DNA of 34,721 nucleotides. Source: Rathayibacter rhapontici. Its GTDB lineage: Bacteria > Actinomycetota > Actinomycetes > Actinomycetales > Microbacteriaceae. Shown piece by piece: positions 18,402-34,320 of this stretch. The notes beneath the pieces are model-generated. The model did not search any database. It saw only the letters and a program-made list of their open reading frames with translations, and had not been told where the DNA came from. Where the stretch lies: contig NZ_MUKN01000041.1 in NCBI RefSeq assembly GCF_001995175.1, positions 1 through 34,721 on the forward strand, written 5' to 3'. The number at the start of each line of letters is the position of its first letter. Position 1 is the first letter of the stretch. The position numbers and the translations under genes are program-made.

Positions 18402-18416
18402 TAGGGTGAGGGCATG
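18402..18416 (+). promoter_or_regulatory. Candidate leaderless promoter of kynureninase
   Basis: TAGGGT (18402-18407), six bases, then ATG at 18414. No ribosome site is present; the spacing matches the SMP-30 and CNNM/CBS starts. Confidence 0.5.
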
Positions 18417-19610
18417 CATCCCCTCGACGCCCGGGACCCGCTCGCGCAGTACCCCGAGCTCTTCGTCCGCACCCCCGAGGTGCGCTCCTACCTCGACGGC
18501 AACTCGCTCGGGCGCCCGTTGCGCGCCAGCATCGAGCGGCTCCAGCGCTTCGCCGAGGAGGAGTGGGGCGGCCGCCTGATCCGCGGCTGGTCCGAGAGCT
18601 GGCTCGAGATGCCGCTCTCCGTCGGCGACGCGCTCGGCGCCGCGGCCCTCGGAGCGGCGGCCGGGCAGACCGTCGTCGCCGACTCCACCACCGTGCTGCT
18701 CTACAAGCTCGCCCGCGCGGCCCTCGCGCACCAGCTGCCCCTCGGCCGCGACGAGATCGTCGTCGACACCGACAACTTCCCGACCGACCGCTACGTGCTC
18801 GAGGGCATCGCGGCCGAGACCGGAGCGACGCTGCGCTGGGTCCGCTCCGCTCCGGAGGCGGGGGTGCGGCCCGTGGAGCTCGCGCCGGTCCTCGGCGACC
18901 GCACCGCGCTCGTGCTGCTCAGCCACGTCGCCTACCGCTCGGGCTTCCTCGCCGACGCGGCCGCGATCACCGCGCAGGCGCACGACGCCGGCGCGCTCGT
19001 GCTCTGGGACGCCTCCCACTCGGTCGGCTCCGTGCCGCTGCAGCTCGACGCCTGGGGCGCCGATCTCGCCGTGGGCTGCTCCTACAAGTACCTCAACGGC
19101 GGCCCCGGCGCGCCGGCCTGGGCGTACGTCGCCCAGCGGCACCAGGAGTCGCTGACGCAGCCGATCCAGGGCTGGATGGGCGTCGCGGACATGTTCGAGA
19201 TGGGACCCGGCTACCGCCCGGCCGAGGGGATGCGGCGCTTCCTCAGCGGCACGCCCCCGATCACCGGGATGCTCGCGATGCAGGACATGATCGCGCTGAT
19301 CGCCGAGGTGGGGATGCCGGCGATCCGCGCGAAGTCCGAGGCGATGACGGCGTACGCGCTGGAGCTCGTCGACGAGTGGCTGGTGCCGCTCGGGGCCCGC
19401 GTGGCGACTCCGCGCGACCCCGCCGCCCGGGGCTCGCACGTCACGATCGACCACGAGTCGTCCGCGGAGCTGGTGCCGCGGCTGCAGGCGAGCGGCGTGA
19501 TCCCGGACTTCCGGAACCCGGACGGCATCCGGATCGGACTGTCGCCGCTGTCGACGACGTTCGCCGAGCTGGAGCTCGGGCTCGCGGAGGTGCGCGACTC
19601 GCTGCGCTGA
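18414..19610 (+). CDS. kynU: Kynureninase
   Basis: 398 residues, the usual length. It is a fold-type I PLP enzyme: YLDGNSLGRP near the N-terminus, IVVDTDNFPTDRYVL, LLSHVAYRSG, WDASHSVGSVPLQL (PLP Asp), the Schiff-base Lys225 in GCSYKYLNGGPGAPAW, QPIQGWMG and FLSGTPPI. Kynureninase splits kynurenine or 3-hydroxykynurenine into (hydroxy)anthranilate and alanine. No tryptophan dioxygenase or kynurenine formamidase lies next to it, so the rest of the pathway must be elsewhere, or the enzyme salvages external kynurenine. Probably translated without a leader from the TAGGGT promoter. Confidence 0.93.
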   Translation: MHPLDARDPLAQYPELFVRTPEVRSYLDGNSLGRPLRASIERLQRFAEEEWGGRLIRGWSESWLEMPLSVGDALGAAALGAAAGQTVVADSTTVLLYKLARAALAHQLPLGRDEIVVDTDNFPTDRYVLEGIAAETGATLRWVRSAPEAGVRPVELAPVLGDRTALVLLSHVAYRSGFLADAAAITAQAHDAGALVLWDASHSVGSVPLQLDAWGADLAVGCSYKYLNGGPGAPAWAYVAQRHQESLTQPIQGWMGVADMFEMGPGYRPAEGMRRFLSGTPPITGMLAMQDMIALIAEVGMPAIRAKSEAMTAYALELVDEWLVPLGARVATPRDPAARGSHVTIDHESSAELVPRLQASGVIPDFRNPDGIRIGLSPLSTTFAELELGLAEVRDSLR

Positions 19611-19739
19611 GCGCACCACCGCGCACCGGCCCCTGCTCCGCGCCTCCGCGACCTGTCAAGCGGCCCCCGCTCCGCGCCCCGCGTGCCTACCGTCGAACAG
19701 AGGTCGCGAGCCGCGCGGCCGACGCGAGGAGGGCATCCG

Positions 19740-20864
19740 ATGGGTTTCTGGGGACAGCACGACGCCGGACGCGAGACCAGGCCGGTCGACGAGCCGGTCG
19801 GTGAGCTCGAGCTGGTGCACGCCTTCGAGAGCGGGCCGATGCCCACCGGGGTGAGCGTGTCCCACACCGGGCGGATCTTCGTGAACTTCCCGAAGTGGGG
19901 CGACGAGGTGCCCGCGACGGTCGTCGAGCTGCGCGACGGAGTGGCGGTGCCGTTCCCGAGCGAGGAGTGGAACAGCCCCGCGAGCGACCACGACGAGACC
20001 GCTCTCGTCTCGGTGCAGAGCATCGTCGTCGACCCGGCCGACCGGCTGTGGATCCTGGACACGGGCAGTCCGCTGTTCCAGCCCACGAAGCGGGGCGGAC
20101 CGAAGCTCGTCTGCGTCGATCTCGCGACCGACACCGTCGAGAAGGTCATCGTCTTCGAGCCCGATGTGGCGCTGCCGACGACCTACCTGAACGACGTGCG
20201 CTTCGATCTGCGCCGCGGAGTCGCGTACATCACCGACTCCGCCGACTCCGGCCCCAACGGGCTGATCGTCGTCGACCTCGAGTCGGGGGAGGCGTGGCGC
20301 CGGCTGCACGAGCACCCGTCGACGAAGGCGCTGACGCCGCCCGAGATGGTGGCCGTGGCGGAGGGGCGCGTGCTGATGAAGCGGCCGGAGGACGGCGATC
20401 CGCAGCCCGTCACCATGGGTGCAGACGGCATCGCGATCTCGGCCGACGGCGAGCGGCTCTGGTACTGCCCGCTGGTCTCGCGGCGCTGGTGGAGCGTGTC
20501 GACGGCGGCGCTGGTGGACCGCTCGCTGCCGGAGGAGGAGGTCGCGGCCACGGTCGTCGACGAGGGCGACAAGGGCGGCGGCTCCGACGGGCTCGAGACC
20601 GATGATCGCGGGCGCTTCTACGCGACCGACTACGAGCACAACGCGATCCTGCGCCGCCGCACCGACGGCGTGCTCGAGACGCTGGTCCACGACGAGCGGA
20701 TGCTGTGGCCCGACACGATGTCGGTCGCGACGGACGAGCACCTCTACTTCACGGCCAACCAGCTGCACCGCCAGGCCGACTACCAGGGCGGAGTGGACCT
20801 GCGCGCGTACCCGTACTCGCTGTTCCGCGTCGCGATCGGGGCGGGGCCGGTGCTGCTGCGGTGA
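19740..20864 (+). CDS. Major royal jelly / Yellow family protein
   Basis: 374 residues from ATG 19740; GAGGAGG lies about 7 bases upstream, which decides this start over an in-frame ATG at 19683. The Yellow/MRJP beta-propeller is seen in GVSVSHTGRIFVNFPKWGD, SVQSIVVDPADRLWILDTGSP, TYLNDVRFDLRRGVAYITDS, PNGLIVVDLESGEAWRRL, DGIAISADGERLWYCPL, SDGLETDDRGRFYATDYEHNAI and LWPDTMSVATDEHLYFTANQLHR. There is no signal peptide, so it is probably cytoplasmic, unlike insect members. Bacterial members have no settled function; some annotations call them dopachrome-tautomerase related. A TACCGT box at 19688-19693 may be its promoter. It follows kynureninase by 129 bp, but a shared role is unproven. Confidence 0.85.
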   Translation: MGFWGQHDAGRETRPVDEPVGELELVHAFESGPMPTGVSVSHTGRIFVNFPKWGDEVPATVVELRDGVAVPFPSEEWNSPASDHDETALVSVQSIVVDPADRLWILDTGSPLFQPTKRGGPKLVCVDLATDTVEKVIVFEPDVALPTTYLNDVRFDLRRGVAYITDSADSGPNGLIVVDLESGEAWRRLHEHPSTKALTPPEMVAVAEGRVLMKRPEDGDPQPVTMGADGIAISADGERLWYCPLVSRRWWSVSTAALVDRSLPEEEVAATVVDEGDKGGGSDGLETDDRGRFYATDYEHNAILRRRTDGVLETLVHDERMLWPDTMSVATDEHLYFTANQLHRQADYQGGVDLRAYPYSLFRVAIGAGPVLLR

Positions 20865-22923: not shown

Positions 22924-25101
22924 ATGAGTGGCAACACCGTCCGCCTCCAGGCCATCCGCGACGTGGAGGCCTACGTTCCTCCGGCGCACAGCTTCGACGA
23001 GTCGGAGGCGCCCGGCGAGGTCTTCGGCGCCAACGTCTTCAGCACCGCGGTGATGCGCAAGCGCCTCCCGAAGTCGGTCTACAAGTCGGTCGTCTCGACG
23101 ATCGAGCGCGGCACGACCCTGGATCCGCTGGTCGCCGACGCGGTCGCGAGCGCGATGAAGGACTGGGCGCTCGAGAAGGGCGCCACCCACTACGCCCACG
23201 TGTTCTACCCGCTCACCGGCCTGACCGCCGAGAAGCACGACAGCTTCTTCGAGCCCACGGGCGACGGAGCGGCGCTCGCCGAGTTCGCCGGCAAGACGCT
23301 CGTGCAGGGCGAGCCCGACGCGTCGAGCTTCCCGAACGGCGGTCTGCGCAACACGTTCGAGGCGCGCGGCTACACCGGCTGGGACGTGACGAGCCCGGCG
23401 TACGTGCTCGAGAACCCCAACGGCAACACCCTCTGCATCCCCACCGTCTTCGTCTCGATGACCGGCGAGGCGCTGGACCACAAGACGCCGCTGCTGCGCT
23501 CGCAGCAGGCGATGGGCGAGCACGCCGAGCGCGTGCTCGCGCTCTTCGGGCACACCGACGACGAGAAGATCGTCTCGTTCTGCGGCCCGGAGCAGGAGTA
23601 CTTCCTGGTGGACCGGCACTTCTTCCTCGCCCGACCCGACCTGATGAACGCGGGCCGCACCCTCTTCGGGAGCACTCCGCCCAAGGGCCAGGAGTTCGAC
23701 GACCACTACTTCGGAGCGATCCCGGAGCGCGTGCTCGGCTTCATGATGGACACCGAGCGCGAGCTGTTCAAGCTCGGCATCCCCGCGAAGACGCGGCACA
23801 ACGAGGTCGCGCCCGGCCAGTTCGAGATCGCGCCGATGTTCGAGCGCGGCAACGTGGCGGCCGACCACCAGCAGCTGCTGATGACGACGTTCAAGACCAT
23901 CGCGAAGAAGCACGGGATGGAGATCCTGTTCCACGAGAAGCCGTTCCAGGGGGTCAACGGCTCGGGCAAGCACGTGAACTTCTCGCTCGGCAACTCCTCG
24001 CTGGGCTCGCTGCTGGTGCCGGGAGACACTCCGCACGACAACGCGCAGTTCCTGGTGTTCTGCGCGGCCGTGATCCGCGCGGTGCACCGCTACTCCGGAC
24101 TCCTGCGCGCCTCCGTCGCCTCGGCGACCAACGACCACCGCCTCGGGGCCAACGAGGCGCCTCCCGCGATCATCTCGATCTTCCTCGGAGACCAGCTCGC
24201 CGACGTGTTCGAGCAGATCGCGTCGGGCCCGGCGACCTCGTCGAAGGGCCGCGGGCACATGACGGTGGGCGTCGACACCCTGCCGCTGCTGCCGACCGAT
24301 CCCGGCGACCGCAACCGCACGAGCCCGTTCGCGTTCACCGGCAACCGCTTCGAGTTCCGTGCTCCCGGATCGATGCAGTCGGTCGCGGGGCCCATGGTCA
24401 CGATCAACACGATCATGGCGGAGTCGCTCGACTGGATCGCCACGCGGCTCGAGCAGGACGTCGCCGACGGGGTCGACTTCGACGCGGCCGTGCAGGCGCT
24501 GCTGACGGAGATCATCACCGAGCACGGCGTGATCGTCTTCAACGGCGACGGCTACGCGGACGCCTGGCCGATCGAGGCCGAGAAGCGCGGGCTCGCGAAC
24601 CTGCGGACGACCCTCGACGCCCTGCCCGAGCTCCTCACCGAGCCTGCCCTGGCCCTGTTCGAGAAGTACCGCGTGTTCAACCACCGCGAGATGCACTCGC
24701 GCTACGAGATCGGGCTCGAGCAGTACGCGCTGACGATCGGCGTGGAGGCGCGTCTCACCCTCGAGATGGGAACCACGACCGTGCTGCCTGCTGCCGTGCG
24801 GCACCAGACCGAGCTCGCCTCGAACGTGGCCGCGATGAAGGCGGCCGGAGTGCCCACCTCGCTCGCCCCGCTGCAGGAGGTCTCGGAGCAGGTCGACGCG
24901 CTGCGGTCGGCGCTGGCGGAGCTCAAGGCGGCGCTCGCCGTCGATCCGGGGCACAGGGCGGAGGCCGAGGCGAAGCACGCCGCAGCGGCGCTGCTGCCGG
25001 CGATGGCGGGCGTGCGCACGGCGGCCGACGCGCTCGAGGACGTCGTGGCGGACGACCTGTGGCCCCTGCCGACCTACCAGGAGATGCTCTACGTGCTGTA
25101 G
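22924..25101 (+). CDS. glnN: Type III glutamine synthetase
   Basis: 725 residues, the large GSIII size (GSI is about 470). Start ATG 22924 with AAGGGA about 8 bases upstream. The GSIII N-terminal signature [20 protein letters not shown] is present, followed by [32 protein letters not shown] (metal Glu), [54 protein letters not shown] and [11 protein letters not shown]. The C-terminus is helical ([21 protein letters not shown]). It catalyses ATP-dependent glutamate plus ammonia to glutamine as a dodecamer. GSIII is less usual in actinobacteria than GSI and is normally an extra enzyme under nitrogen control. The gene appears intact. Confidence 0.95.
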
Positions 25102-25246: not shown

Positions 25247-26055
25247 TCAGGAGCCGATGGTCGTCACCGTCGCGACCACCAGACCGAACGCTGCGACGGG
25301 GACGCCGAGAGCGCCGCCGAGCGCCGTGAGCACCCAGGCGTTCCTGCGCCGAGCGGCGGCGCGGACGCGGTCGCGGAGGTCGAGGAACCACACGAGGTGA
25401 TCGGTCGAGAGCTCCGGTGCCGTGCTGCCGCGCGTCCAGGTCCGCGGCTGGACGACCGCGTGGCGCACGAGCTCGGTCGAGACCGCGCTGTGGGTCGGGG
25501 AGCGTTCCGGGCGAGGAACGCCGACAGCTCGCGGAGCGTGATCACCGCGACGCCCTCGGGCGTGCCCTTGCGGGTGAGCTTCGCGCCCACCACCACGATG
25601 ACGGCGAGCACGTCGACGCTCCCGCCGGTCGCCGTGCTCAGGAGCCGCGCGGCGCGAGAGGCCTCGTGGCCCGAGTTGCGGAGGTACGGCCGCCGCTGCC
25701 CGTTCACGAGGAAGGCCTTGGGGGAGACCCACACCCGCCCGCCCGGGCTGTGCTTGGTGTTCACCGTGAGCACCCGGCCGGCGGGGCTGACGAGGACGTG
25801 GTCGATGTCGCTCCCGCGGTCGCCCACCGGCACCGAGTGCAGCACCAGCCACCCCTCGGGCAGGGAGCGGAGCTCGTCGGCGACCGCGAGCTCGCCGAGG
25901 AGGCCGGTGTACCAGCTGCGCGCGGTGGTCGGGATCGGGCTGGCCCCGAAGAGCCGGGCGGCGGAGGTCTGCGGCTGCTCGGGTGACATGGCGTCCCGCA
26001 GCGCCTGCATCAGCGCTTCTCCGGGCACACGGGTGACGAGCGACGAGTCGGACAC
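25247..26055 (-). pseudogene. NERD-domain protein with a frameshift near 25500
   Basis: Starts at GTG 26055 with AGGAG 7 bases upstream. Residues about 45-150 are a NERD (nuclease-related) domain: SWYTGLLGELAVADELRSLP, SDIDHVLVSPAGRVLTVNTKH and KAFLVNGQRRPYLRNSGHEA, with the Asp and Lys of the nuclease-like core (xDxDH...NTKH). At about residue 185 the frame changes: after LSAFLARNAP the sensible continuation THSAVSTELVRHAVVQPRTW is in another frame, ending at 25247 after a membrane helix (ALGGALGVPVAAFGLVVATV). Restoring one C in the CCCC run at 25497-25500 gives about 269 residues. As written the first frame ends at 25264. The function is unproven; membrane-tethered DNA processing is inferred. 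Confidence 0.83.
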
Positions 26056-26099: not shown

Positions 26100-26109
26100 A
26101 ACCTAGGGA
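26100..26109. promoter_or_regulatory. Back-to-back -10 candidates
   Basis: The sequence aacctaggga gives TAGGTT on the minus strand (26105-26100), a plausible -10 box for the NERD gene, and TAGGGA on the plus strand (26104-26109), a weaker candidate for the importer operon. If the latter is used, the importer transcript carries a leader of about 300 bases. Confidence 0.3.
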
Positions 26110-26111
26110 TG

Positions 26112-26421
26112 CAGCCCCGGGTGCCGCTGGCACCCGTCAGGGGTTCGGACTGTCCGGTCGGCGACGGATGCTCCGGTTCCTCGGATCGTGCAGTACACAG
26201 CAGAGACAAGGGGCAAGAACTCCACCGAGAGCGGAGTCGAAACCCGCAGTGGCAGGCTGGAAACCTGACCGCAACACGGTTTCCCCGTGCATCGAGGAGC
26301 GCGCGGAGACCGCCGATGGAAATCCTCCGTGCGACGAGGCGGCCGGCCACCCGACTGCGGTCGACTGGAACCCGCCTCCCCCGGCCCGCCCCACCTCACC
26401 CGTCGCCTCATTGGAGCCCGC
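26112..26421 (+). ncRNA. Long structured leader of the importer operon (unassigned)
   Basis: About 310 bases precede the substrate-binding protein gene. They hold a strong hairpin (CGGGTGCC-gct-GGCACCCG within CCCC/GGGG) near 26115-26147 and a multi-part helix at 26240-26282: AAACC pairs with GGTTT, GTGG with CCGC, CAGG with CCTG, closing a CTGGAAA loop, with one bulged A and one asymmetric internal loop. CACGG-tttcc-CCGTG follows. The sequence does not match the TPP, cobalamin or guanidine-I riboswitch cores I know. It may be a ligand-sensing leader, but this is a structural reading by eye only. Confidence 0.35.
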
Positions 26422-27492
26422 ATGCCCCTCACCGTCCTCACCCGGTCGCGTCGCCGCGCCGTGCTCGGCGCGCTCGCCGTCGCCCTGGCCACCACGACCG
26501 CCCTCACCGCCTGCTCCAGCGGGTCCGACGCGAGCGCCTCGGGCTCGGGCGAGGAGGGCTCGTTCGGCGAGGCCGCGATGCAGCTCTCGTGGGTCCCCCA
26601 CGTGGAGTTCGCCGGCGAGTACCTCGCCGACGCGAACGGCTACTTCACCGACGCCGGCTTCGACTCCGTCACCCTGACCCCCGGCGGCACCGGCGCGACT
26701 GGCGCCGAGACGGCCATCGCGAGCGGATCCGCGTTCGCGGGCGTCTCCTCCCCGCTGATCACCGGACCCGCGATCTCGGAGGGCGCCGAGATGAAGATCG
26801 TCGGAGCGACCTACCAGAAGAACCCGTTCGCGATCGTCTCGCTCACCGACGCCCCGATCGAGACCCCCGAGGACATGGTCGGCAAGACCATCGGAGTCAG
26901 CGACAGCAACGACCTCGTGTGGCGCGCGTTCCTCGCCGCCAACGACATCGACGAGTCCGACGTGAACCGCGTGCCCCTCACCGACTCGACGCTGCTCACC
27001 ACCGGCCAGGTCGACGGCTACATCGGCTACGCGACCGCCGGAGCGAACACGCTCAACCAGCGCGGCTTCTCGGCGCAGCAGTTCCTGCTCGCCGACACCG
27101 GCCTGCCGATGGTGGGCGAGACGATCGTGGTCGCGCAGGCGAGCATCGACGACGAGCGCGAGAAGGTGAAGGCGCTGCTGCTCGCCCTCGTGCAGGGCTG
27201 GCAGGACGCCGTCGCCGATCCCGAGGCCACCGCCGAGACCGTCGTCGCCGACTACGCGGCCGACCAGAACTACAAGGTCGAGGAGCAGGCGCAGGTCATG
27301 GTCACCCAGACCGAGCTGATCAGCACCCCCGAGACCGACGAGAGCGGCCTGCTCACCATCAGCGACGAGCTGCAGGAGCAGTCGGTCGCCTCCCTCGCGC
27401 TGACCGGCATCGAGCTCGACGCCGACGAGCTCTTCGACACCACGCTGATCGACGAGGTCTACGAGGAGCACCCGGAGCTGCTCGAGGGCTGA
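26422..27492 (+). CDS. NMT1/THI5-like ABC transporter substrate-binding lipoprotein
   Basis: 356 residues from ATG 26422 with GGAG 7 bases upstream. An RSRRR-type basic start, hydrophobic helix and lipobox LTAC place the lipid-modified cysteine at residue 31, so the mature protein is membrane-tethered on the outside. The NMT1-like fold is shown by MQLSWVPHVEFAGEYLADANGYFTDAGF at the mature N-terminus and by AIASGSAFAGVSSPLI, EDMVGKTIGVSDSND and VDGYIGYATAGANTL. Relatives bind pyrimidines, riboflavin precursors, sulfonates and similar small molecules; the ligand here is unknown. It is the first gene of a seven-gene run and is preceded by a long structured leader. The enzymes downstream suggest a nitrogen-rich or heterocyclic ligand. 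Confidence 0.9.
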   Translation: MPLTVLTRSRRRAVLGALAVALATTTALTACSSGSDASASGSGEEGSFGEAAMQLSWVPHVEFAGEYLADANGYFTDAGFDSVTLTPGGTGATGAETAIASGSAFAGVSSPLITGPAISEGAEMKIVGATYQKNPFAIVSLTDAPIETPEDMVGKTIGVSDSNDLVWRAFLAANDIDESDVNRVPLTDSTLLTTGQVDGYIGYATAGANTLNQRGFSAQQFLLADTGLPMVGETIVVAQASIDDEREKVKALLLALVQGWQDAVADPEATAETVVADYAADQNYKVEEQAQVMVTQTELISTPETDESGLLTISDELQEQSVASLALTGIELDADELFDTTLIDEVYEEHPELLEG

Positions 27493-27534
27493 GCCCCGAG
27501 CACTCCCTGACGACCCGCGCGAGAGGACGAGACG

Positions 27535-28338
27535 TTGACCACCATCGAGAACGGCACCGAGGGCATCCGCCTGTCGGGCCTGAGCAAGCGCTTCGACCTG
27601 GGATCCCGGTCGGTGCAGGCGCTCGCCGAGGTCGACCTCGTCACTCCGCGCGGGTCGTTCCTGTCGCTGCTGGGCCCCTCCGGCTGCGGCAAGTCGACGA
27701 TCCTGCGGATGCTGGCCGGGCTCGAGAAGCCGACGACCGGCTCCGTCTCGATCCACGGCACTCCCGTCGTCGGCACGAAGCGGAAGGCCGAGCTGGGCAT
27801 CGCGTTCCAGGACTCGGCGCTGCTGCCCTGGCGCTCGGTGCGCTCCAACGTGCGCCTGCCGCTCGAGCTGACACGTCAGGCGTCCAAGCGCGACAGCATC
27901 CCCGACCTGCTCGACCTGGTCGGGCTGACCGGCTTCGAGGACGCCTACCCGTCGCAGCTCTCGGGCGGCATGCGCCAGCGCGCCTCGATCGCCCGCGCCC
28001 TCGTGGTGCAGCCCGATCTGCTCCTGCTCGACGAGCCGTTCGGCGCGCTCGACGACATGACGCGCCAGCGGCTCAACCTCGAGCTGCAGCGCATCTGGAC
28101 CGCGCGGCCGGCGACCACCCTGATGGTGACGCACGGCATCGCCGAGGCGATCCTCCTCTCGGACACGGTGGCCGTGATGTCGCCCCGGCCCGGGCGCATC
28201 GTCGAGGTCATCGACATCGACCTCCCGCGCCCGCGCACCGTCGAGATGCTCCGCAGCCCCGAGTTCCACGCGATCGAGGACCGCATCACCGACCTGCTGT
28301 TCTCTCAGCACGGCGTGGCGATGGAGGACGAGGGGTGA
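27535..28338 (+). CDS. ABC transporter ATP-binding protein (NMT1-type importer)
   Basis: 267 residues starting at TTG 27535, supported by GAGAGG about 9 bases upstream. Walker A is GPSGCGKST, the Q-loop [15 protein letters not shown], the signature [15 protein letters not shown], Walker [14 protein letters not shown] and the switch histidine VTHGIAEA. Wording and size are those of the SsuB/TauB/ThiZ group. It energises import with the two permeases that follow. Its stop codon overlaps the GTG of the first permease by four bases (GTGA). Confidence 0.93.
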
Positions 28339-29138
28339 CCTGGCTGCGCACGAACTGGCGGGTCCTCGCCGGCCTCGCCGTCTTCGTCGCGGTCTGGTGG
28401 ATCCTCGCGGAGACCGTCTACCGCGAGAGCCGAGCCGTGCCGAGCCCGGGCGCGATCGTCGCCGCGTTCCTCCGCGACGGTCCCCTCTTCTACCTCCGCA
28501 ACGTCGGCGACACCGTGCTCGCCGCCGGCTGGGGCTACCTCTGGGGCACCCTCGCGGCCCTGGCGCTCGCCGTCGTCGCGCTGCTGCTGCCGTGGACCCA
28601 CCGGGTCATCGAGCAGATCGGCGTGATCAGCCACTGCCTCCCGCTGACGGCGGTCGGCCCCGTGATCCTCGTGATCTTCGGCGGCCGGACCACCTCGATC
28701 TTCCTCGCCGCGCTGCTGGTCTTCTTCACCACCCTGATCGGCGCGCTGCTGGGCGTCCGCTCGGCCCCGCGCACCGCGCTCGACCTCGTCTCGGCCTACC
28801 GCGGCGGACGCTGGGCGCAGATCGTGAAGGTGCAGGCCGTCGCAGCCGTGCCCGCGACGCTCACCGCGCTCCAGGTGGGCGTGCCCGCGGCGATCCTCGG
28901 CGCGGTGCTCGGCGAGTACCTCGGCGGAGTGACGACCGGCCTCGGAGTCGCGCTCGCGGTCGCGCAGCGCCAGATGGACGTCGAGCGCGCCTGGGCTTTC
29001 GCCGTGCTGAGCGGAGTCGTCACGATCCTCGGCTACGCGCTCATCGCGGCCGTCGGACGCTGGGTCATGCCCCGCGTGACCGGCACTCCGCGCGCCACCC
29101 GCCGCTCGATCCTGCGCCGCACCGGAGGAGTCGTATGA
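28335..29138 (+). CDS. ABC transporter permease 1
   Basis: 267 residues from GTG 28335. It has about six membrane helices and the BPD-type loop where [46 protein letters not shown] marks the coupling helix to the ATPase. An N-terminal [22 protein letters not shown] is typical of the SsuC/ThiX group. It shares four bases with both the preceding ATPase stop and the following permease start, so the three genes are tightly coupled. Confidence 0.92.
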
Positions 29139-29974
29139 CCGCCACCGCCACCCGCGTCCCCGCCCGCCGCGCCCGCGACCTCACGCCGCGCCTCGCGCTC
29201 CGCATCGTCCGCGCCGAGCTCGTGCCGCTCGCGATCGCCGCGGTGCTCGCGATCGCGTTCTGGTACGCGTTCCTCGCGATCGCCGACATCTCGCCCCTCC
29301 TGGGCAAGACGCCGACGGACGTCGCGACCTACCTCTTCGTCGAGGCCGACGCCGCCGAGAACCGCGCGGTCGTCTTCGGCAACCTCGGAGTCACCGCGCT
29401 CGACGCCCTGATCGGCTACGCGGCGGGCATGCTCGTCGCCCTCGCGATCGCGGTGCTCTTCGTGCTCGTCCGCTCGCTCGAGGCCACCGTGATGCCGATC
29501 GCGATGCTGCTCAAGTCGATGCCGCTGATCGTGGTCACTCCGCTGATCACGCTCGCGATCGGCAACGGGATCGCGGCGGTCGCCGTGGTCGGAGCGGTCG
29601 CGGTGTTCTTCCCGGCGCTCGTGACCGTGGTGTTCGGGCTGCGCTCGCTCTCGCGCGAGTCGTTCGAGCTGGTGACGGTCTACGGGGGCTCGCCGCTGGA
29701 CGTGCTGCTCAAGGTCGCCCTGCCGACCGCGGTGCCGGCGATCTTCGCGGCGGCCAAGGTGGCGGTCCCCTCCGCTCTGAGCGGAGCGATGCTGGCCGAG
29801 TGGCTGGCCACGGGGAAGGGCCTGGGCGGAGCGGTGCAGCGCGCCTCGGCGGGCTTCCGCTACGACGAGCTGTGGGCGTCGCTCGCGGTGATCACGGCGC
29901 TGGGAGTCGCGGCCTACGCCGTCGTGGCGATCGGCGAGAGACTGGCGGCCGTCCGCTTCGGCGGACAGGACTGA
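29135..29974 (+). CDS. ABC transporter permease 2
   Basis: 279 residues from ATG 29135 with GGAGGAG upstream inside the previous gene. The coupling region is RESFELVTVYGGSPLDVLLKVALPTAVPAIFAAAKVAVPSALSGAMLAEWLATGKGLGG, again of the SsuC type, with about six membrane segments and a basic N-terminal tail. Two different permeases imply a heterodimeric channel, common in NMT1-type importers. Confidence 0.92.
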   Translation: MTATATRVPARRARDLTPRLALRIVRAELVPLAIAAVLAIAFWYAFLAIADISPLLGKTPTDVATYLFVEADAAENRAVVFGNLGVTALDALIGYAAGMLVALAIAVLFVLVRSLEATVMPIAMLLKSMPLIVVTPLITLAIGNGIAAVAVVGAVAVFFPALVTVVFGLRSLSRESFELVTVYGGSPLDVLLKVALPTAVPAIFAAAKVAVPSALSGAMLAEWLATGKGLGGAVQRASAGFRYDELWASLAVITALGVAAYAVVAIGERLAAVRFGGQD

Positions 29975-29983
29975 AGGAGCGGC

Positions 29984-31195
29984 ATGAGCGGCAACGGAAC
30001 CATCACCGGCACGATCTGGGACGGCCGACGCGCCCTGGGCACGGCGGCGCTCGCGTGGAACGGCGACGAGATCGTCTCCGTCGAGCCCGTCGAGGCGCAC
30101 GGCGAGGAGGAGGGTCTCTCGATCATCCCCGGCCTCGTCGACACCCACGTCCACCTCGGCGCCTACTCGGGCGCGGGCACGGCCGACTTCGCCTCCTGGC
30201 CGCTGATCACCCCGCGCGAGGAGCGGGTGTTCCACATCGCGAACAACGCCCGCAAGGCCGCCCGCGCCGGAGTCACGACCCTGCGCGATCTCGGCGCCGA
30301 CGAGCTGCAGATGACGGTGGCGCGGATGTTCGAGCAGGGCATCGCCGACGGGCCGCGGCTCGTCACGCACGGCGCCGTCGGCATGACTGCCGGTCACGGC
30401 GACCTGTTCGTGCCTCCGCACTACCCGCACCGCGACCGCGTCGCCGACAGCCCCGACGAGTGCCGGCGGCTGGTCCGCACCTGGGCGCGGGCCGGCGCCG
30501 ACGGCATCAAGATCTACACGAGCGGCGGCGTGCTCTCGATGGGCGACCGGGTCGGCTGGCGCAACCAGACCGACGCCGAGATCGCCGCGACGATCGACGA
30601 GGCGCACGCGCTGGGCATGCCCGTCGCCGCACACACCCACTCCGTCGAGGGCCTCGACCGCGCGCTCGCGCTCGGCGTCGACTCGATCGAGCACGGCACC
30701 GCGATCGGGCCGCAGCACTGGGCGACGCTCGTCGAGCGGAACCTCCCGGTCGCTCCCACCCTCTTCATCAACGACGTGATCGCCGCCGGGCGTGCGCCGT
30801 CGTCGCCGGAGGCGTCGCTCAAGGCGCAGGACGTCGTCGCCACCCGCGACGCCGGGTTCCTCGCGGCGGGCGAGGCCGGGGTGCGCTTCGTGCTCGGCAC
30901 CGACGCGAACGGCGTCTACGTCGACTGGGGCGAGCAGCTCGACGAGGTGCGGCGGATGCGCACGGCGTTCGGCTGGAGCTCCGAGCGCGCCTTGATCGCG
31001 GCGACGTCCGACGCGGCCGCCGTCGTCGGACTCGGATCGCGCGTGGGGCGGCTCGCGGCCGGCTTCGGCGCCGACTTCGTCGTGCTGCGCGGGCGCCCGT
31101 GGGAGAGCATCGACGACCTGCGGGCCGAGAGCATCGTGGCCGTCGTGTCCCGCGGCCGGGTCGTGTCGGGTGCGCTGCCCGAGGCGCTCCGATGA
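29984..31195 (+). CDS. Metal-dependent amidohydrolase (imidazolonepropionase-like)
   Basis: 403 residues from ATG 29984, GGAG 7 bases upstream. The binuclear amidohydrolase site is visible: HxH in VDTHVHLG (His55, His57), a lysine in GIKIYTSGG (Lys176, likely the carboxylated metal bridge), AAHTHS (His217/219), IEHGTAI (His237) and GTDANG (Asp307). A small beta-sandwich is made from both ends (residues 1-50 and 350-403). Relatives cleave cyclic amides, dipeptides or organophosphates and deaminate rings, so the family alone does not name the substrate. No signal peptide: it acts in the cytoplasm on what the importer brings in. Its stop overlaps the RidA-like start as ATGA. Confidence 0.9.
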   Translation: MSGNGTITGTIWDGRRALGTAALAWNGDEIVSVEPVEAHGEEEGLSIIPGLVDTHVHLGAYSGAGTADFASWPLITPREERVFHIANNARKAARAGVTTLRDLGADELQMTVARMFEQGIADGPRLVTHGAVGMTAGHGDLFVPPHYPHRDRVADSPDECRRLVRTWARAGADGIKIYTSGGVLSMGDRVGWRNQTDAEIAATIDEAHALGMPVAAHTHSVEGLDRALALGVDSIEHGTAIGPQHWATLVERNLPVAPTLFINDVIAAGRAPSSPEASLKAQDVVATRDAGFLAAGEAGVRFVLGTDANGVYVDWGEQLDEVRRMRTAFGWSSERALIAATSDAAAVVGLGSRVGRLAAGFGADFVVLRGRPWESIDDLRAESIVAVVSRGRVVSGALPEALR

Positions 31196-31581
31196 CCGCC
31201 GCACCTCGCCGGTTCGTCTCGGCCGAGGCGCTCGGAGCGCCCCGCGGGGCCTACAGCCACGCGGTCGAGGCGCACGGAGTGGTCTACGGATCCGCCATCG
31301 GCCCCTTCGCGCCGGGCGACGGCTCGGTGCCCGAGGGCGTCGCGGCGCAGACCGCCGCCGCGCTCGACAACATCGAGCGGCTGCTCGGCACCGAGTTCGG
31401 CCTGGAGCTGGGCGACGTGGTGCGGATCACGATGATCCTCACCGACTTCGAGCGCGACTTCGCTGCCTCCTCCGCCGTCTACGCCGAGCGCTTCCCCGTC
31501 GATCCGCCCGCGCGCACCGTGCTCGGCGCGGCGCTGCCCGGCCCCCTCGTCGCGATGGACTTCATCGCGACGGCCCGCTGA
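31192..31581 (+). CDS. RidA/YjgF family protein
   Basis: 129 residues from ATG 31192. The fold is marked by PRGAYSHAVEAHGVVYGSAIGPFAP, VAAQTAAALDNIERLL, DVVRITMILTDFERDFAASSAVYAERF and PPARTVLGAALPGPLVAMDFIA. The substrate-carboxylate arginine of RidA is kept (PART), while the final-strand glutamate of true RidA proteins is aspartate here (MDFIA). RidA hydrolyses reactive enamines/imines to ketoacids; other subfamilies act in Rut-like or aminomuconate-like ring degradation. In this operon it probably processes an unstable amino intermediate made by the amidohydrolase or the deaminase. Confidence 0.88.
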   Translation: MTAAPRRFVSAEALGAPRGAYSHAVEAHGVVYGSAIGPFAPGDGSVPEGVAAQTAAALDNIERLLGTEFGLELGDVVRITMILTDFERDFAASSAVYAERFPVDPPARTVLGAALPGPLVAMDFIATAR

Positions 31582-31595
31582 ACCGGAAGGCCCCC

Positions 31596-32585
31596 GTGAC
31601 CCTCGACTCCTTCGTCCGCGGCCTGCCCAAGGCCGAGCTGCACGTGCACCTCGAGGGCACCCTCGAGCCGGATCTGCGCGTGCGCCTCGCCGAGCGCAAC
31701 GGCCTGCCGGTGCCCGCCGCGCTCTCGTACGACTTCGACTCGCTCGCCTCGTTCCTCGCTGTCTACTACCCGGCGATGGACGTGCTGCGCGAGGAGCAGG
31801 ACTTCTACGACCTGGCGACGGAGTACTTCCGCCGCGCGGCCGCCGACGGGGTGGTGCGCGCCGAGGTGTTCTTCGACCCGCAGGCGCACACCTCGCGGGG
31901 CGTGCCCTTCGAGTCGGTGATCGGCGGCTACCACCGCGCCGCCGTCGACGCGGCCGGGCTCGGGATCGACGCCGCGCTGATCCTCTGCTTCCTGCGCGAT
32001 CTGTCGGCCGAGAGCGCGCGTGAGACGCTCGAGCGCGCGCTGCCGTTCGCCGACCGCCTGATCGGCGTGGGGCTCGACTCCGACGAGCGCGGCAACCCGC
32101 CGGCCAAGTTCCGCGAGGTGTTCGCGCTCGCCCGCGAGGCGGGGCTCCGGCTGACGATGCACTGCGACGTCGACCAGCCCAACAGCGTCGAGCACCTGCG
32201 CCAGGTGCTGGAGGAGATCGGCGTCGACCGGATCGACCACGGCACGAACATCGTCGAGGCTCCCGAGCTCGTCGAGCGCGTCCTCGAGCGCGGGCTCGCG
32301 CTGACTTGCTGCCCGCTGTCGAACTCGTTCGTCTCGAGCGACATGAAGGCGGTGGAGCTGCGCGCGCTGCTCGAACGCGGCGTGCGGGTGACGGTCAACT
32401 CCGACGACCCGGCCTACTTCAGCGGGTACATCGCCGACAACTACCTCGCACTGGCCTCCCGCGCCGGCTTCACCCGGGACGAGCTGGTGCAGCTGGCGCG
32501 CAACTCGGTGCTCGGCTCGTGGGCGTCGCCCGAGGTCCAGGAGGAGCTGCTCGCCCGGATCGACGCGCACGCGGCGACGGCGTAG
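31596..32585 (+). CDS. Adenosine/adenine deaminase-family protein with altered active site
   Basis: 329 residues from GTG 31596 with GGAAGG 6 bases upstream. It aligns along its length with bacterial adenine deaminase of the fungal type: LPKAELHVHLEGTLEPDL, YDFDSLASFLAVYYPAMDVL, EQDFYDLATEYFRRAAADGV, VFFDPQAHTSRGVPFESVIGGY, VGLDSDERGNPPAKF and VNSDDPAYFSGYI. Zinc ligands His16, His18, His189 and Asp270 are present, as is His215 (IDHGTN). The normal HAGE motif after the third ligand is replaced by HCDVDQ, so the catalytic glutamate position is Val192, flanked by Asp191 and Asp193. The enzyme may use one of these aspartates, act on another substrate, or be inactive as a classical deaminase. It is the last gene of the run. 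Confidence 0.85.
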   Translation: MTLDSFVRGLPKAELHVHLEGTLEPDLRVRLAERNGLPVPAALSYDFDSLASFLAVYYPAMDVLREEQDFYDLATEYFRRAAADGVVRAEVFFDPQAHTSRGVPFESVIGGYHRAAVDAAGLGIDAALILCFLRDLSAESARETLERALPFADRLIGVGLDSDERGNPPAKFREVFALAREAGLRLTMHCDVDQPNSVEHLRQVLEEIGVDRIDHGTNIVEAPELVERVLERGLALTCCPLSNSFVSSDMKAVELRALLERGVRVTVNSDDPAYFSGYIADNYLALASRAGFTRDELVQLARNSVLGSWASPEVQEELLARIDAHAATA

Positions 32586-32692
32586 GGGCTCTGCCTGCTC
32601 CGAACCCGCAGCTCCCCGTGGCGGGTCCCGTCGTGCGGGTGGCGGGGCGTGTGAGAATCGCCGGGTCGGTCCATCGCGGTGGATCCGGAAGT

Positions 32693-32730
32693 GAACCCCG
32701 GGGGATCCCGTACGACGGGGCCCGGGGTTC
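32693..32730. terminator. Bidirectional terminator between deaminase and PucR genes
   Basis: GAACCCCGGG (32693-32702) pairs perfectly with CCCGGGGTTC (32721-32730), and CCCGT-acg-ACGGG pairs inside (32707-32719). It lies between two convergent genes ending at 32585 and 32770. Confidence 0.8.
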
Positions 32731-32769
32731 CGCGCTGCGTGGAGAGTCCTCGGGCGGTTCGCCTCCCGC

Positions 32770-34320
32770 TCAGAGGTACCGCAGCGCCAGGTGCAGGTCG
32801 ACGCGGTCGGACATCGAGCCGAGGTCGCGGCCGGTCAGCGCCTCGATGCGCTGCACCCGGTAGCGGAGGGTGCTGGCGTGCAGGTGCAGGAGGTCCGCGG
32901 CCCGGCGCCACGCGCCTCCGCTCTCGAGGAACACGCGCAGGGTCTCGACCATGTCGGAGCGGTGCTCGTCGTCGTAGCGGACCAGCTCGCCGAGCACCTC
33001 GCGGGCGAAGGCGGCGCGGGTGCGCGGCGAGATCAGCTCGAGCAGGGCGCCGCTCGAGACCGGCACCGTGTGCGCGAGCACCGTGACGGGGTCTGCGGAG
33101 GAGTCGGCGGCCGCGGTCGCCCGGGCGCGGGCGGCGAGCAGCGAGGCTCCGAGCTGCCCGACGGAGCGGGAGCCGTCTCCGACGCCGATCGCGACCCGGC
33201 GACCGCGCAGGAGCCACGGCTCGGCCTCGACGGCGGCGCGGAGGGCGGGCCCCGGCTGCCTCTCCTCGTCGTGCGGATCGCCCAGGAGCAGCACCGCGCT
33301 TCCGTCGAGCACACCGCCGAGGGTCAGAGCGTGCTCGCGCTCGCCCGCCTCGCGCAGCGGCCGCAGCAGCGCCTCGGGAGGGAGCGACGGGTCGTCCGAG
33401 CGGGCGAGCACCACCCGCAGGGGCGCTCCGAGCCGTGCTCCGAGCAGGCGCAGCCGCACCGAGACCTCGCCGTCCGGCAGCTCGTCGTTCTCGACGGCGC
33501 GCAGCAGGTCGAGCAGCGGTTCCGCCGCCTGCTGTTCGCGGCGACGGGCGAGCGCGAGGCGACCGGAGACGGTGCCGGCGAGCAGGTCGGCGGCGTCGGC
33601 CGACTCCTCCGACCAGCCCCTCTGATCGCCGGTCACCACGAGCACGCCGAGCCGTTCGCCGGAGGAGGAGAACAGGGCCTTCCGGGACAGGGTGCGGCTG
33701 CCGGGAGCGACGTCCCAGCGATCGTCGGAGGAGGCGAGCGACGCGTCCCACGCGGATCCGGACTCGGCGGGGGACGGCATGCCGCCCGCCGAGGCGACGA
33801 GGACGCCGGAGCGGTCGATCACCCAGCTGCCGTGCGCGAACTCCTCGAAGAAGGCGCGGAGGGCGGCGTGCACGCCCTCGCCCGCGGCGAGGTCCTGGAG
33901 CAGCCGCCGGGCGAAGCGGGCGTCGCGGCCGAGCGTGGGCAGGTCGGCCTGCGCGAGCACCCCCGCGACGGTCTGGCCGATCGTCTTGAACGACACCTCG
34001 GGCGAGACCGTCAGCAGCGCGACTCCGTGCCGACGGCAGACCTCGGCCATGCCGGCGGGCAGCGTGCCGACGGCGATGAGGCCGACGACGATCGCCACGA
34101 CTCCGCGATCGGCGACCTGGCCGACGAACCGCTCGACGCTCTCGCGCCCGGAGGTCCACAGCGCACTCGTGAGCACGACGTCGCCGGGGGAGAGGAAGCG
34201 GCCGGGGTCGGGGAGGTCGATCGTGTAGGTGCCCGAGATCGCGCGCGAGAGCTGCACCTCGTCGCCGGTCACCAGGGTCAGCTGGAGCTCGGGATGGGTG
34301 AGGAGCTCGCGGACGTTCAC
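32770..34320 (-). CDS. PucR-family transcriptional regulator
   Basis: 516 residues from GTG 34320. The N-terminal PucR domain (about 1-125) reads VRELLTHPELQLTLVTGDE, DLPDPGRFLSPGDVVLTSAL and VADRGVVAIVVGL; a GAF-like/GGDEF-derived middle follows, and the C-terminal helix-turn-helix (about 455-516) reads ETLRVFLESGGAWRRAADLLHLHASTLRYRVQRIEALTG. PucR of Bacillus controls purine degradation; related proteins control other nitrogen-compound pathways and sense a small ligand. It converges on the importer/deaminase run and is its probable regulator. A TAGTCT box on this strand at about 34370-34375 may be its promoter. Confidence 0.92.
   Translation of the reverse strand: MNVRELLTHPELQLTLVTGDEVQLSRAISGTYTIDLPDPGRFLSPGDVVLTSALWTSGRESVERFVGQVADRGVVAIVVGLIAVGTLPAGMAEVCRRHGVALLTVSPEVSFKTIGQTVAGVLAQADLPTLGRDARFARRLLQDLAAGEGVHAALRAFFEEFAHGSWVIDRSGVLVASAGGMPSPAESGSAWDASLASSDDRWDVAPGSRTLSRKALFSSSGERLGVLVVTGDQRGWSEESADAADLLAGTVSGRLALARRREQQAAEPLLDLLRAVENDELPDGEVSVRLRLLGARLGAPLRVVLARSDDPSLPPEALLRPLREAGEREHALTLGGVLDGSAVLLLGDPHDEERQPGPALRAAVEAEPWLLRGRRVAIGVGDGSRSVGQLGASLLAARARATAAADSSADPVTVLAHTVPVSSGALLELISPRTRAAFAREVLGELVRYDDEHRSDMVETLRVFLESGGAWRRAADLLHLHASTLRYRVQRIEALTGRDLGSMSDRVDLHLALRYL

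What the first reader, a model, noticed from the sequence alone, without database searches (positions are those of the whole stretch)
26104..34320. Candidate undescribed import-and-degradation system with PucR control
Seven genes on one strand with overlaps or short gaps (substrate-binding lipoprotein, ATPase, two permeases, amidohydrolase, RidA-like protein, ADA-like deaminase) face a PucR-type regulator. Seen: gene order, four-base overlaps at 28335, 29135 and 31192, family motifs. Known: NMT1-type importers carry small heterocycles, amidohydrolases open or hydrolyse rings, RidA proteins clear reactive enamines, PucR regulators control purine and other nitrogen-compound degradation. Inference: the set takes up a modified purine, pyrimidine or other nitrogen heterocycle and strips its amino groups. 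No standard pathway I know (Rut, Puc, creatinine, guanidine) has this exact gene set.
Basis: partly seen in the sequence, partly recalled or inferred. Interest (0 to 1): 0.8.

Follow-up and report, generated by a model that had tools for sequence, protein, structure and literature searches.

The report
Purine-type import and deamination operon
A Rathayibacter bacterium carries a real, conserved gene set that most likely imports an adenine-like nitrogen compound and strips nitrogen from it, using one enzyme that resembles a standard adenosine deaminase but has an altered catalytic motif.

Summary
In detail: SBP, ATPase, two permeases, amidohydrolase (AHY), RidA and ADA-like genes run one way (26422-32585) with the three stated overlaps, tail-to-tail with PucR. 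The seven-gene set was seen only in Rathayibacter, in 10 of 15 genomes; the same 10, and none of the other 5, hold this PucR. Pieces recur in Actinobacteria: AHY has an NMT1 importer within 10 kb in 32 of 79 loci and a deaminase of the window's ADA family in 30 of 79. The ADA-like protein belongs to one clade (33 of 97 sequences gathered) in which the HAGE glutamate is replaced by D-x-D-Q; 14 of 27 other clade loci read have an importer next door: NMT1 ABC, NCS2, NCS1 or Opp. Best reading: uptake of a 6-aminopurine or N6-substituted adenine and hydrolytic removal of its exocyclic nitrogen, the product feeding the XDH/uricase cluster elsewhere in the genome. The substrate is inferred, not shown. 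New variant of a known kind; the altered-motif clade is the most interesting part.

The parts
26220..26236 (.). imperfect inverted repeat CTCC-N9-GGAG, possible regulator site (by eye)
   Evidence: sequence; related repeats seen by eye in relatives; not tested statistically
26249..26369 (+). leader/promoter element conserved in Rathayibacter
   Evidence: found in the same 10 of 15 genus genomes as the operon (E <= 5.4e-21; an 11th, G539, only a 35-nt match); model R1 gives strong hits in 4 Rathayibacter and only weak ones in 5 other genomes of 249; weak covariation, no Rfam family at gathering score
26422..27492 (+). NMT1/THI5-like substrate-binding lipoprotein
   Evidence: PF09084 132.5 bits; profile A6 closest to 4nmy and ThiY 3ix1
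27535..28338 (+). ABC ATPase (TTG start)
   Evidence: PF00005
28335..29138 (+). ABC permease 1
   Evidence: PF00528
29135..29974 (+). ABC permease 2
   Evidence: PF00528
29984..31195 (+). amidohydrolase AHY (kin of Cc2672 / Xaa-Pro and Xaa-Arg hydrolases)
   Evidence: PF01979; 3mtw 1.7e-45; presumed ligand residues kept in 79 or 80 of 80 family members, the one miss a gap
31192..31581 (+). RidA/YjgF-like protein
   Evidence: PF01042; PDB kin
31596..32585 (+). ADA-like metal hydrolase of the HCD(I/V)DQ clade
   Evidence: PF00962 240 bits; HAGE motif replaced; single clade
32770..34320 (-). PucR-type regulator
   Evidence: PF07905, PF13556; in 10 of 10 genus genomes with the operon, 0 of 5 without

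Best explanation
A nitrogen-scavenging operon for an adenine-like heterocycle. The binding protein catches a 6-aminopurine or N6-substituted adenine outside the cell and the ABC permeases and ATPase import it (inferred). The amidohydrolase cuts an amide or amine bond on the imported compound, and the ADA-like enzyme of the HCDxDQ clade attacks the C6 position hydrolytically, releasing ammonia or an amine and leaving a hypoxanthine-type base (inferred). RidA disposes of an enamine/imine by-product of the amidohydrolase branch (inferred; RidA is also found with AHY where no HCD-type ADA is near). The product can enter the genome's separate XDH/uricase cluster. PucR senses the compound or an intermediate and controls the operon (co-occurrence shown, control inferred).
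For: SBP profile: 4nmy 2.3e-24, ThiY 4.9e-14, THI5 1.2e-7, taurine binder only 0.0011. AHY loci: NMT1 SBP within 10 kb in 32 of 79, ADA-family deaminase in 30 of 79, any of three purine-deaminase types in 42 of 79, PucR in 27 of 79. HCD clade beside NMT1 ABC in 7 of 14 non-Rathayibacter Microbacteriaceae loci; beside an NCS2 permease and an Ade-family protein in 4 of 4 Lactobacillaceae plasmids read, the one permease compared having AZG1/AZG2 adenine/guanine permeases as its only solved kin and the one Ade-like protein compared an adenine deaminase as its best; beside NCS1 permease + Ade-family in Streptomyces; beside Opp ABC in Phaeobacter. XDH, uricase and another PucR on contig C65. PucR profile 10 of 10 and 0 of 5. 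Precedent: NMT1/THI5-like genes in purine-degradation operons with deaminases and amidohydrolases in Proteobacteria (PMC7373994, passages).
Against: No substrate shown. AHY's best-characterised kin cleave dipeptides or N-acyl amino acids (activities partly recalled), and six AHY operons carry D-aminoacylase-like and D-serine-dehydratase-like genes. A purine-deaminase neighbour is missing in 37 of 79 AHY loci (some stretches are cut) and changes at least 15 times on the AHY tree, more often than the importer type does, 10. 13 of 27 non-Rathayibacter HCD loci show no importer next to the gene (20 larger unlabelled neighbours scanned, none a transporter). The HAGE glutamate is missing in the ADA-like enzyme, so ordinary adenine deamination is not expected. 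ThiY-like SBPs also carry pyrimidines. The 79 loci are not independent (14 are Nonomuraea or A. parvosata).
Confidence: 0.5

Rival explanations
1. Thiamine-type pyrimidine salvage: the importer takes up a formylamino- or aminomethyl-pyrimidine and the hydrolases trim it to a thiamine precursor.
For: SBP profile matches ThiY and THI5.
Against: No TPP riboswitch or other Rfam family at gathering score in L001, which holds the operon; no thiamine gene among the eight; partner genes elsewhere are often purine deaminases, and in lactobacilli an AZG-type permease.
Confidence: 0.15
2. N-acyl amino acid or small peptide use: AHY is an amidase/dipeptidase, RidA clears aminoacrylate-type products, and the ADA-like gene is a passenger.
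For: AHY best matches Cc2672 and a Xaa-Pro dipeptidase model; 17 of 79 AHY loci have an Opp-type SBP; D-aminoacylase-like and D-Ser-dehydratase-like genes between importer and AHY in six Cellulomonas-type clusters; 37 of 79 AHY loci lack a purine-deaminase neighbour.
Against: NF051886 score 208.4 against a cut-off of 500; purine-type deaminases in 42 of 79 loci; NMT1 SBPs are not known peptide binders (recalled).
Confidence: 0.2
3. Two unrelated functions in one transcript: an NMT1-AHY-RidA unit and an HCD-ADA unit merged in Rathayibacter.
For: In Microbacteriaceae the HCD-ADA lies next to another kind of SBP, whose relative in this genome is on contig C73 (59-61% to three of them, 42% to the window's); full set seen only in one genus.
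Against: AHY and HCD-ADA are also neighbours in a second genus (L163); elsewhere AHY has a HAGE-type member of the same ADA family nearby.
Confidence: 0.25
4. The ADA-like protein is catalytically dead or regulatory.
For: HAGE glutamate absent in 33 of 33 clade members.
Against: HxH, the metal His, the HG His and both Asp of SDDP are kept in 33 of 33, and D, D and Q of D-x-D-Q are invariant.
Confidence: 0.1

Closest known systems
Adenosine deaminase family proteins 3ou8/3pan and 3rys (recalled as adenine deaminases, Pa0148 type)
   Same: Same family, metal site, HLEGTL and SDDP motifs; closest solved kin
   Different: HAGEE replaced by HCD(I/V)DQ with a two-residue insertion
Cytokinin deaminase Patl2390 (cog1816 group 3)
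   Same: Member of the adenosine-deaminase COG; shows that members can act on N6-methyl- and N6-dimethyladenine and not on adenine (PMC13296781, section 3.4 read)
   Different: Its sequence was not compared here; the Photobacterium, Vibrio and Sphingobium relatives read have HAGE
NMT1/THI5-like purine operons under the xanthine (NMT1-motif) riboswitch
   Same: NMT1-type proteins next to deaminases and amidohydrolases, tied to purine degradation (PMC7373994, passages)
   Different: That RNA is said to be found only in Proteobacteria; none here; here a PucR
ThiXYZ (formylaminopyrimidine importer)
   Same: SBP family
   Different: No thiamine gene among the eight and no TPP riboswitch
Xaa-Arg / Xaa-Pro hydrolases of the amidohydrolase superfamily (Cc2672, 3mtw)
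   Same: Closest solved kin of AHY, same ligand pattern
   Different: Far below the Xaa-Pro dipeptidase model's cut-off; company often of purine type
Rut pyrimidine pathway
   Same: A RidA-like protein, kin of RutC
   Different: RutC model 39.6 bits against 169.1; no Rut-type oxygenase or amidase among the eight genes

Membership tests
Canonical adenosine/adenine deaminase | Metal ligands HxH, His, Asp and the HG histidine | tested here: met
   33 of 33 clade members, window included
Canonical adenosine/adenine deaminase | HAGE motif with catalytic Glu | tested here: not met
   MHCDVDQ at 188-194; in the MAFFT alignment Gln stands where 64 of 64 others have Glu, in 33 of 33
Canonical adenosine/adenine deaminase | NCBIfam cut-offs | tested here: inconclusive
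   TIGR01430 331.6 bits against 216.55 (met); NF006850 382.9 against 419 (not met)
Aliphatic sulfonate importer (SsuA) | TIGR01728 cut-off | tested here: not met
   45.3 bits against 163.5
Thiamine-precursor importer (ThiY) | SBP similarity | tested here: met
   3ix1 4.9e-14 with profile A6
Thiamine-precursor importer (ThiY) | TPP riboswitch or thi genes | tested here: not met
   no Rfam family at gathering score in L001; no thi gene among the eight
Xaa-Pro dipeptidase (NF051886) | model cut-off | tested here: not met
   208.4 bits against 500
PucR regulator | PucR domain plus C-terminal HTH | tested here: met
   PF07905 65.8, PF13556 75.4 bits
NMT1-motif riboswitch operon | xanthine riboswitch upstream | tested here: not met
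Purine catabolic operon | acts on a purine | not testable with these tools
   needs binding and enzyme assays

The most novel reading that the evidence does not exclude
The HCD(I/V)DQ clade, which meets the adenosine deaminase model TIGR01430 and is named add in the annotated records read, is a separate enzyme family that replaced the HAGE proton donor by a D-x-D-Q element and works on a different purine (for example an N6-substituted adenine such as a cytokinin or a modified RNA base). It occurs in Actinobacteria, on plasmids of lactobacilli and in Alphaproteobacteria, often with a nucleobase-type importer, and in Rathayibacter it was joined to a second purine uptake unit (NMT1-AHY-RidA-PucR).
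Probability: 0.4. Interest if true: 0.65.

Novelty: new variant of a known kind. Interest (0 to 1): 0.5.

Why it matters
If right, a set of genes named 'adenosine deaminase' has another substrate and another catalytic acid, which can be tested with one purified protein. It would also give a function to an amidohydrolase group that recurs in Actinobacteria with three kinds of importer, and point to modified adenines as a nitrogen source for such bacteria.

Tried and rejected
Sulfonate import: set aside on model scores. Thiamine/TPP control: at gathering score the seven sources L001, L009, L010, L052, L111, L158, L162 gave one match, a tRNA in L009; 26050-26450 alone gave two matches at E 3.9 and 8.7, far below those families' thresholds.

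Leader as riboswitch: the 121-nt element is well conserved, but single-sequence folding is ordinary (z -1.08), 3 of 41 predicted pairs show a two-sided change and the covariation term is +0.45; in 249 family genomes the hits outside Rathayibacter are 5, at about 22 bits; 29 related loci gave nothing below E 0.15, 6 of them or their kin searched again 0.095 at best. Left open, not claimed.

Regulator site: the palindrome [CT]GGnnGATCnnCC[GA] occurs 12 times in 81 promoter regions before SBP/AHY/ADA genes against once in 455 other promoter regions of the same loci; the looser core GGnnGATCnnCC gives 12 against 14 (23.7 kb against 100.9 kb). The pattern was drawn by eye from some of these regions, so the test is partly circular. 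The core is not in the window's intergenic DNA (L001).

Structure prediction for the SBP and the ADA-like protein was not available, so no fold search was made. Papers: none holds 4 of the 6 terms PucR, amidohydrolase, adenosine deaminase, ABC transporter, RidA, NMT1; none holds HCDIDQ, HCDVDQ or MHCDID; the listings showed no account of this gene set. The library lacks most subscription papers. Opened: PMC12828455 (abstract, passages), PMC13054789 (abstract and outline), PMC13296781 (passages, one section), PMC7373994 and PMC8234997 (passages). The last, a review of bacterial cytokinin breakdown, does not contain the word deaminase.

Recalled, not from a call: role of the HAGE Glu as ring proton donor, Pa0148 as adenine deaminase, cytokinin transport by AZG1/AZG2, activities of Cc2672-type enzymes, BMP proteins as nucleoside binders.

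Full report
WHAT IS THERE. The window is Rathayibacter DNA (contig G000:C41; AHY 97% identical to Rathayibacter sp. SD072). Seven genes run on the + strand from 26422 to 32585: NMT1/THI5-like lipoprotein, ABC ATPase, two permeases, amidohydrolase (AHY), RidA and an ADA-like protein; a PucR gene lies tail-to-tail at 32770-34320. The stretch 26104-26421 is upstream region.

CONSERVATION OF THE WHOLE SET. In a DNA search of 15 Rathayibacter genomes at E <= 1e-100, the seven genes are colinear in 10; in two of these the match is in two pieces, and in one (G547) the contig ends just inside the SBP gene and the leader lies on another contig. The other 5 show only matches to the ABC genes, at paralogue level. 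The PucR gene is found in the same 10 and in none of the 5: contiguous or within 3 kb in 7, about 9, 20 and 22 kb away in 3. The 10 may share this by descent, so it supports regulation without proving it. Among 79 AHY loci from other records, SBP + ADA family + RidA + PucR within 10 kb was found in 3, all Rathayibacter; in the other two Rathayibacter loci PucR lies about 20 kb off.

THE AMIDOHYDROLASE. One scan of genome contigs (84,980 species) gave 101 AHY relatives, of which 80 loci were returned. I called genes with a script and clustered them. In 79 loci (L116 dropped, AHY not called), within 10 kb there is an NMT1 SBP in 32, an Opp-type SBP in 17, a BMP/nucleoside-type ABC in 20 (one locus has both of the last two), none of these in 11; a deaminase of the window's ADA family in 30, a second ADA type in 11, Ade-family in 9, any of the three in 42; PucR in 27; PCC-domain protein in 20; creatininase-family in 15; RidA in 8 (domain names from one member per cluster). 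Some stretches are cut by contig ends, and 14 loci are Nonomuraea or A. parvosata. With one or two such ADA genes per genome of 3-4 Mb, chance would put one within 10 kb in about 1% of loci (my arithmetic). On the quick AHY tree (80 rows, 69 labelled) importer type changes 10 times (shuffled labels 30.3; strongly supported branches alone force 3 to 6 per type); the presence of a purine deaminase changes 15 times. So AHY is linked to purine deaminases far above chance but not steadily. Nine weaker AHY relatives (L032-L040, 31-36% identity, 1.5 kb flanks or less) show none of the window's other genes nearby; the flanks are short.

THE ADA-LIKE PROTEIN IS NOT CANONICAL. The window protein keeps HxH, the metal His, the HG His and SDDP, but has MHCDVDQ in place of HAGEE. 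Of 97 relatives gathered by similarity, 33 have H(C/A)D-x-DQ and 64 HAGE; D, D and Q are invariant in 33 of 33, and Gln aligns with the Glu. The 33 form one clade (SH-aLRT 99) among 102 rows with outgroup, with the motif columns in or out (quick trees; L213 and L200 on long branches). Being drawn by similarity, 33 of 97 is no frequency. The best five of 27 solved sequences matched, whose alignments I read, have HAGE. The genome also keeps a HAGE-type paralogue (G000:C70, 44%), so the HCD protein is not its only protein of this family.

ITS NEIGHBOURS. Apart from Rathayibacter, 27 HCD loci were read. Microbacteriaceae, 14: NMT1 ABC adjacent in 7 (L151, L152, L158, L159, L161, L162, L210); AHY plus Opp ABC in 1 (L163, which also has HAGE-ADA, a second ADA type, Ade, PCC and PucR); none recognised in 6 (L153-L157, L160). 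Lactobacillaceae plasmids, 4 of those hit: NCS2 permease and Ade-family protein in 4 of 4, among insertion sequences; the one permease compared has AZG1/AZG2 adenine/guanine permeases as its only solved kin, the one Ade-like protein compared has adenine deaminase 3nqb as best, and two Ade-like proteins score below the TIGR01178 cut-off. Streptomyces L202: NCS1 permease plus Ade-like. Phaeobacter L213: Opp ABC directly downstream, XdhC nearby. No adjacent importer in Komagataeibacter L200 and six other actinobacterial loci, L203, L205-L209; in L203 an Opp-type ABC lies 1.5 kb off on the other strand. So 14 of 27 have an importer next to the gene, of four unrelated kinds. Twenty of the larger unlabelled neighbours in nine of the importer-less loci were scanned: none is a transporter, three have no Pfam family (one further small one none).

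THE IMPORTER. A profile of 20 SBPs matches 4nmy (ligand unknown), ThiY and THI5 well and a taurine binder only at 0.0011. By eye the alignment shows two SBP kinds, one with AHY and one with HCD-ADA; another NMT1 SBP of this genome, on C73, is 59-61% identical to three HCD-linked SBPs, 51-52% to two more, and 42% to the window's. It lies beside an enolase gene; in L154 the HCD-ADA itself lies near an enolase gene. This fits, but does not show, that the HCD-ADA was moved from that unit into the window's operon.

WHERE THE PRODUCT COULD GO. Contig C65 carries XDH, uricase, an amidohydrolase and another PucR. A type III glutamine synthetase lies just upstream in the window.

REGULATION. In non-Rathayibacter loci a palindrome marks 11 of 81 promoter regions of SBP/AHY/ADA (partly circular, see Tried and rejected). 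The window lacks it; its own upstream region has a genus-only conserved element. DNA or RNA role is open.

SHOWN AND INFERRED. Shown: gene order, families, motif change, single clade, recurrent neighbours, PucR co-occurrence. Inferred: purine-like ligand; hydrolysis at C6; AHY's cut; RidA clearing an imine; PucR control. Patl2390 of the same COG is reported to act on N6-methyl- and N6,N6-dimethyladenine and not on adenine or adenosine (PMC13296781, section 3.4), so a specialised substrate is plausible. In guanine and cytosine deaminases a glutamate does the proton transfers and a separate glutamine holds the substrate (PMC12828455, passages); what D-x-D-Q does is unknown.

VERDICT. The finding is real and its guess about purines is the best supported, at even odds. 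The exact set is a genus-level assembly of more widely spread modules. The most worthwhile part is the deaminase clade with the changed motif.

Noticed in passing
22924-25101: Glutamine synthetase type III gene upstream on the same strand, separated by one NERD-domain gene (25264-26055, minus strand): nitrogen theme.
   Followed up: no
26249-26369: Genus-only conserved leader with blocks such as GAAACCT, CCGCAACAC and TCCTCCGTGCGACGA, two of which could pair; RNA or DNA role unclear.
   Followed up: partly
L009 5065-8753 (G000:C73): Another NMT1 importer of this genome looks frame-broken: SBP match in two adjacent frames and a short second permease; decay or assembly error.
   Followed up: no
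L197, L198, L199, L201: Three-gene cassette (NCS2 permease, Ade-like, HCD-ADA) on Lactobacillaceae plasmids among insertion sequences.
   Followed up: partly
L047, L052, L054, L065, L067, L114: D-aminoacylase-like plus D-serine-dehydratase-like genes between the NMT1 importer and AHY (families from the L047 genes).
   Followed up: partly
L083, L089, L100, L103, L105, L107, L108, L119, L120: AHY directly after a BMP-type ABC set, with LacI, creatininase-family, amidohydrolase or GATase1-like genes near some of them.
   Followed up: no
18414-20864: Kynureninase-like gene followed by a major-royal-jelly-protein family gene, same strand.
   Followed up: no
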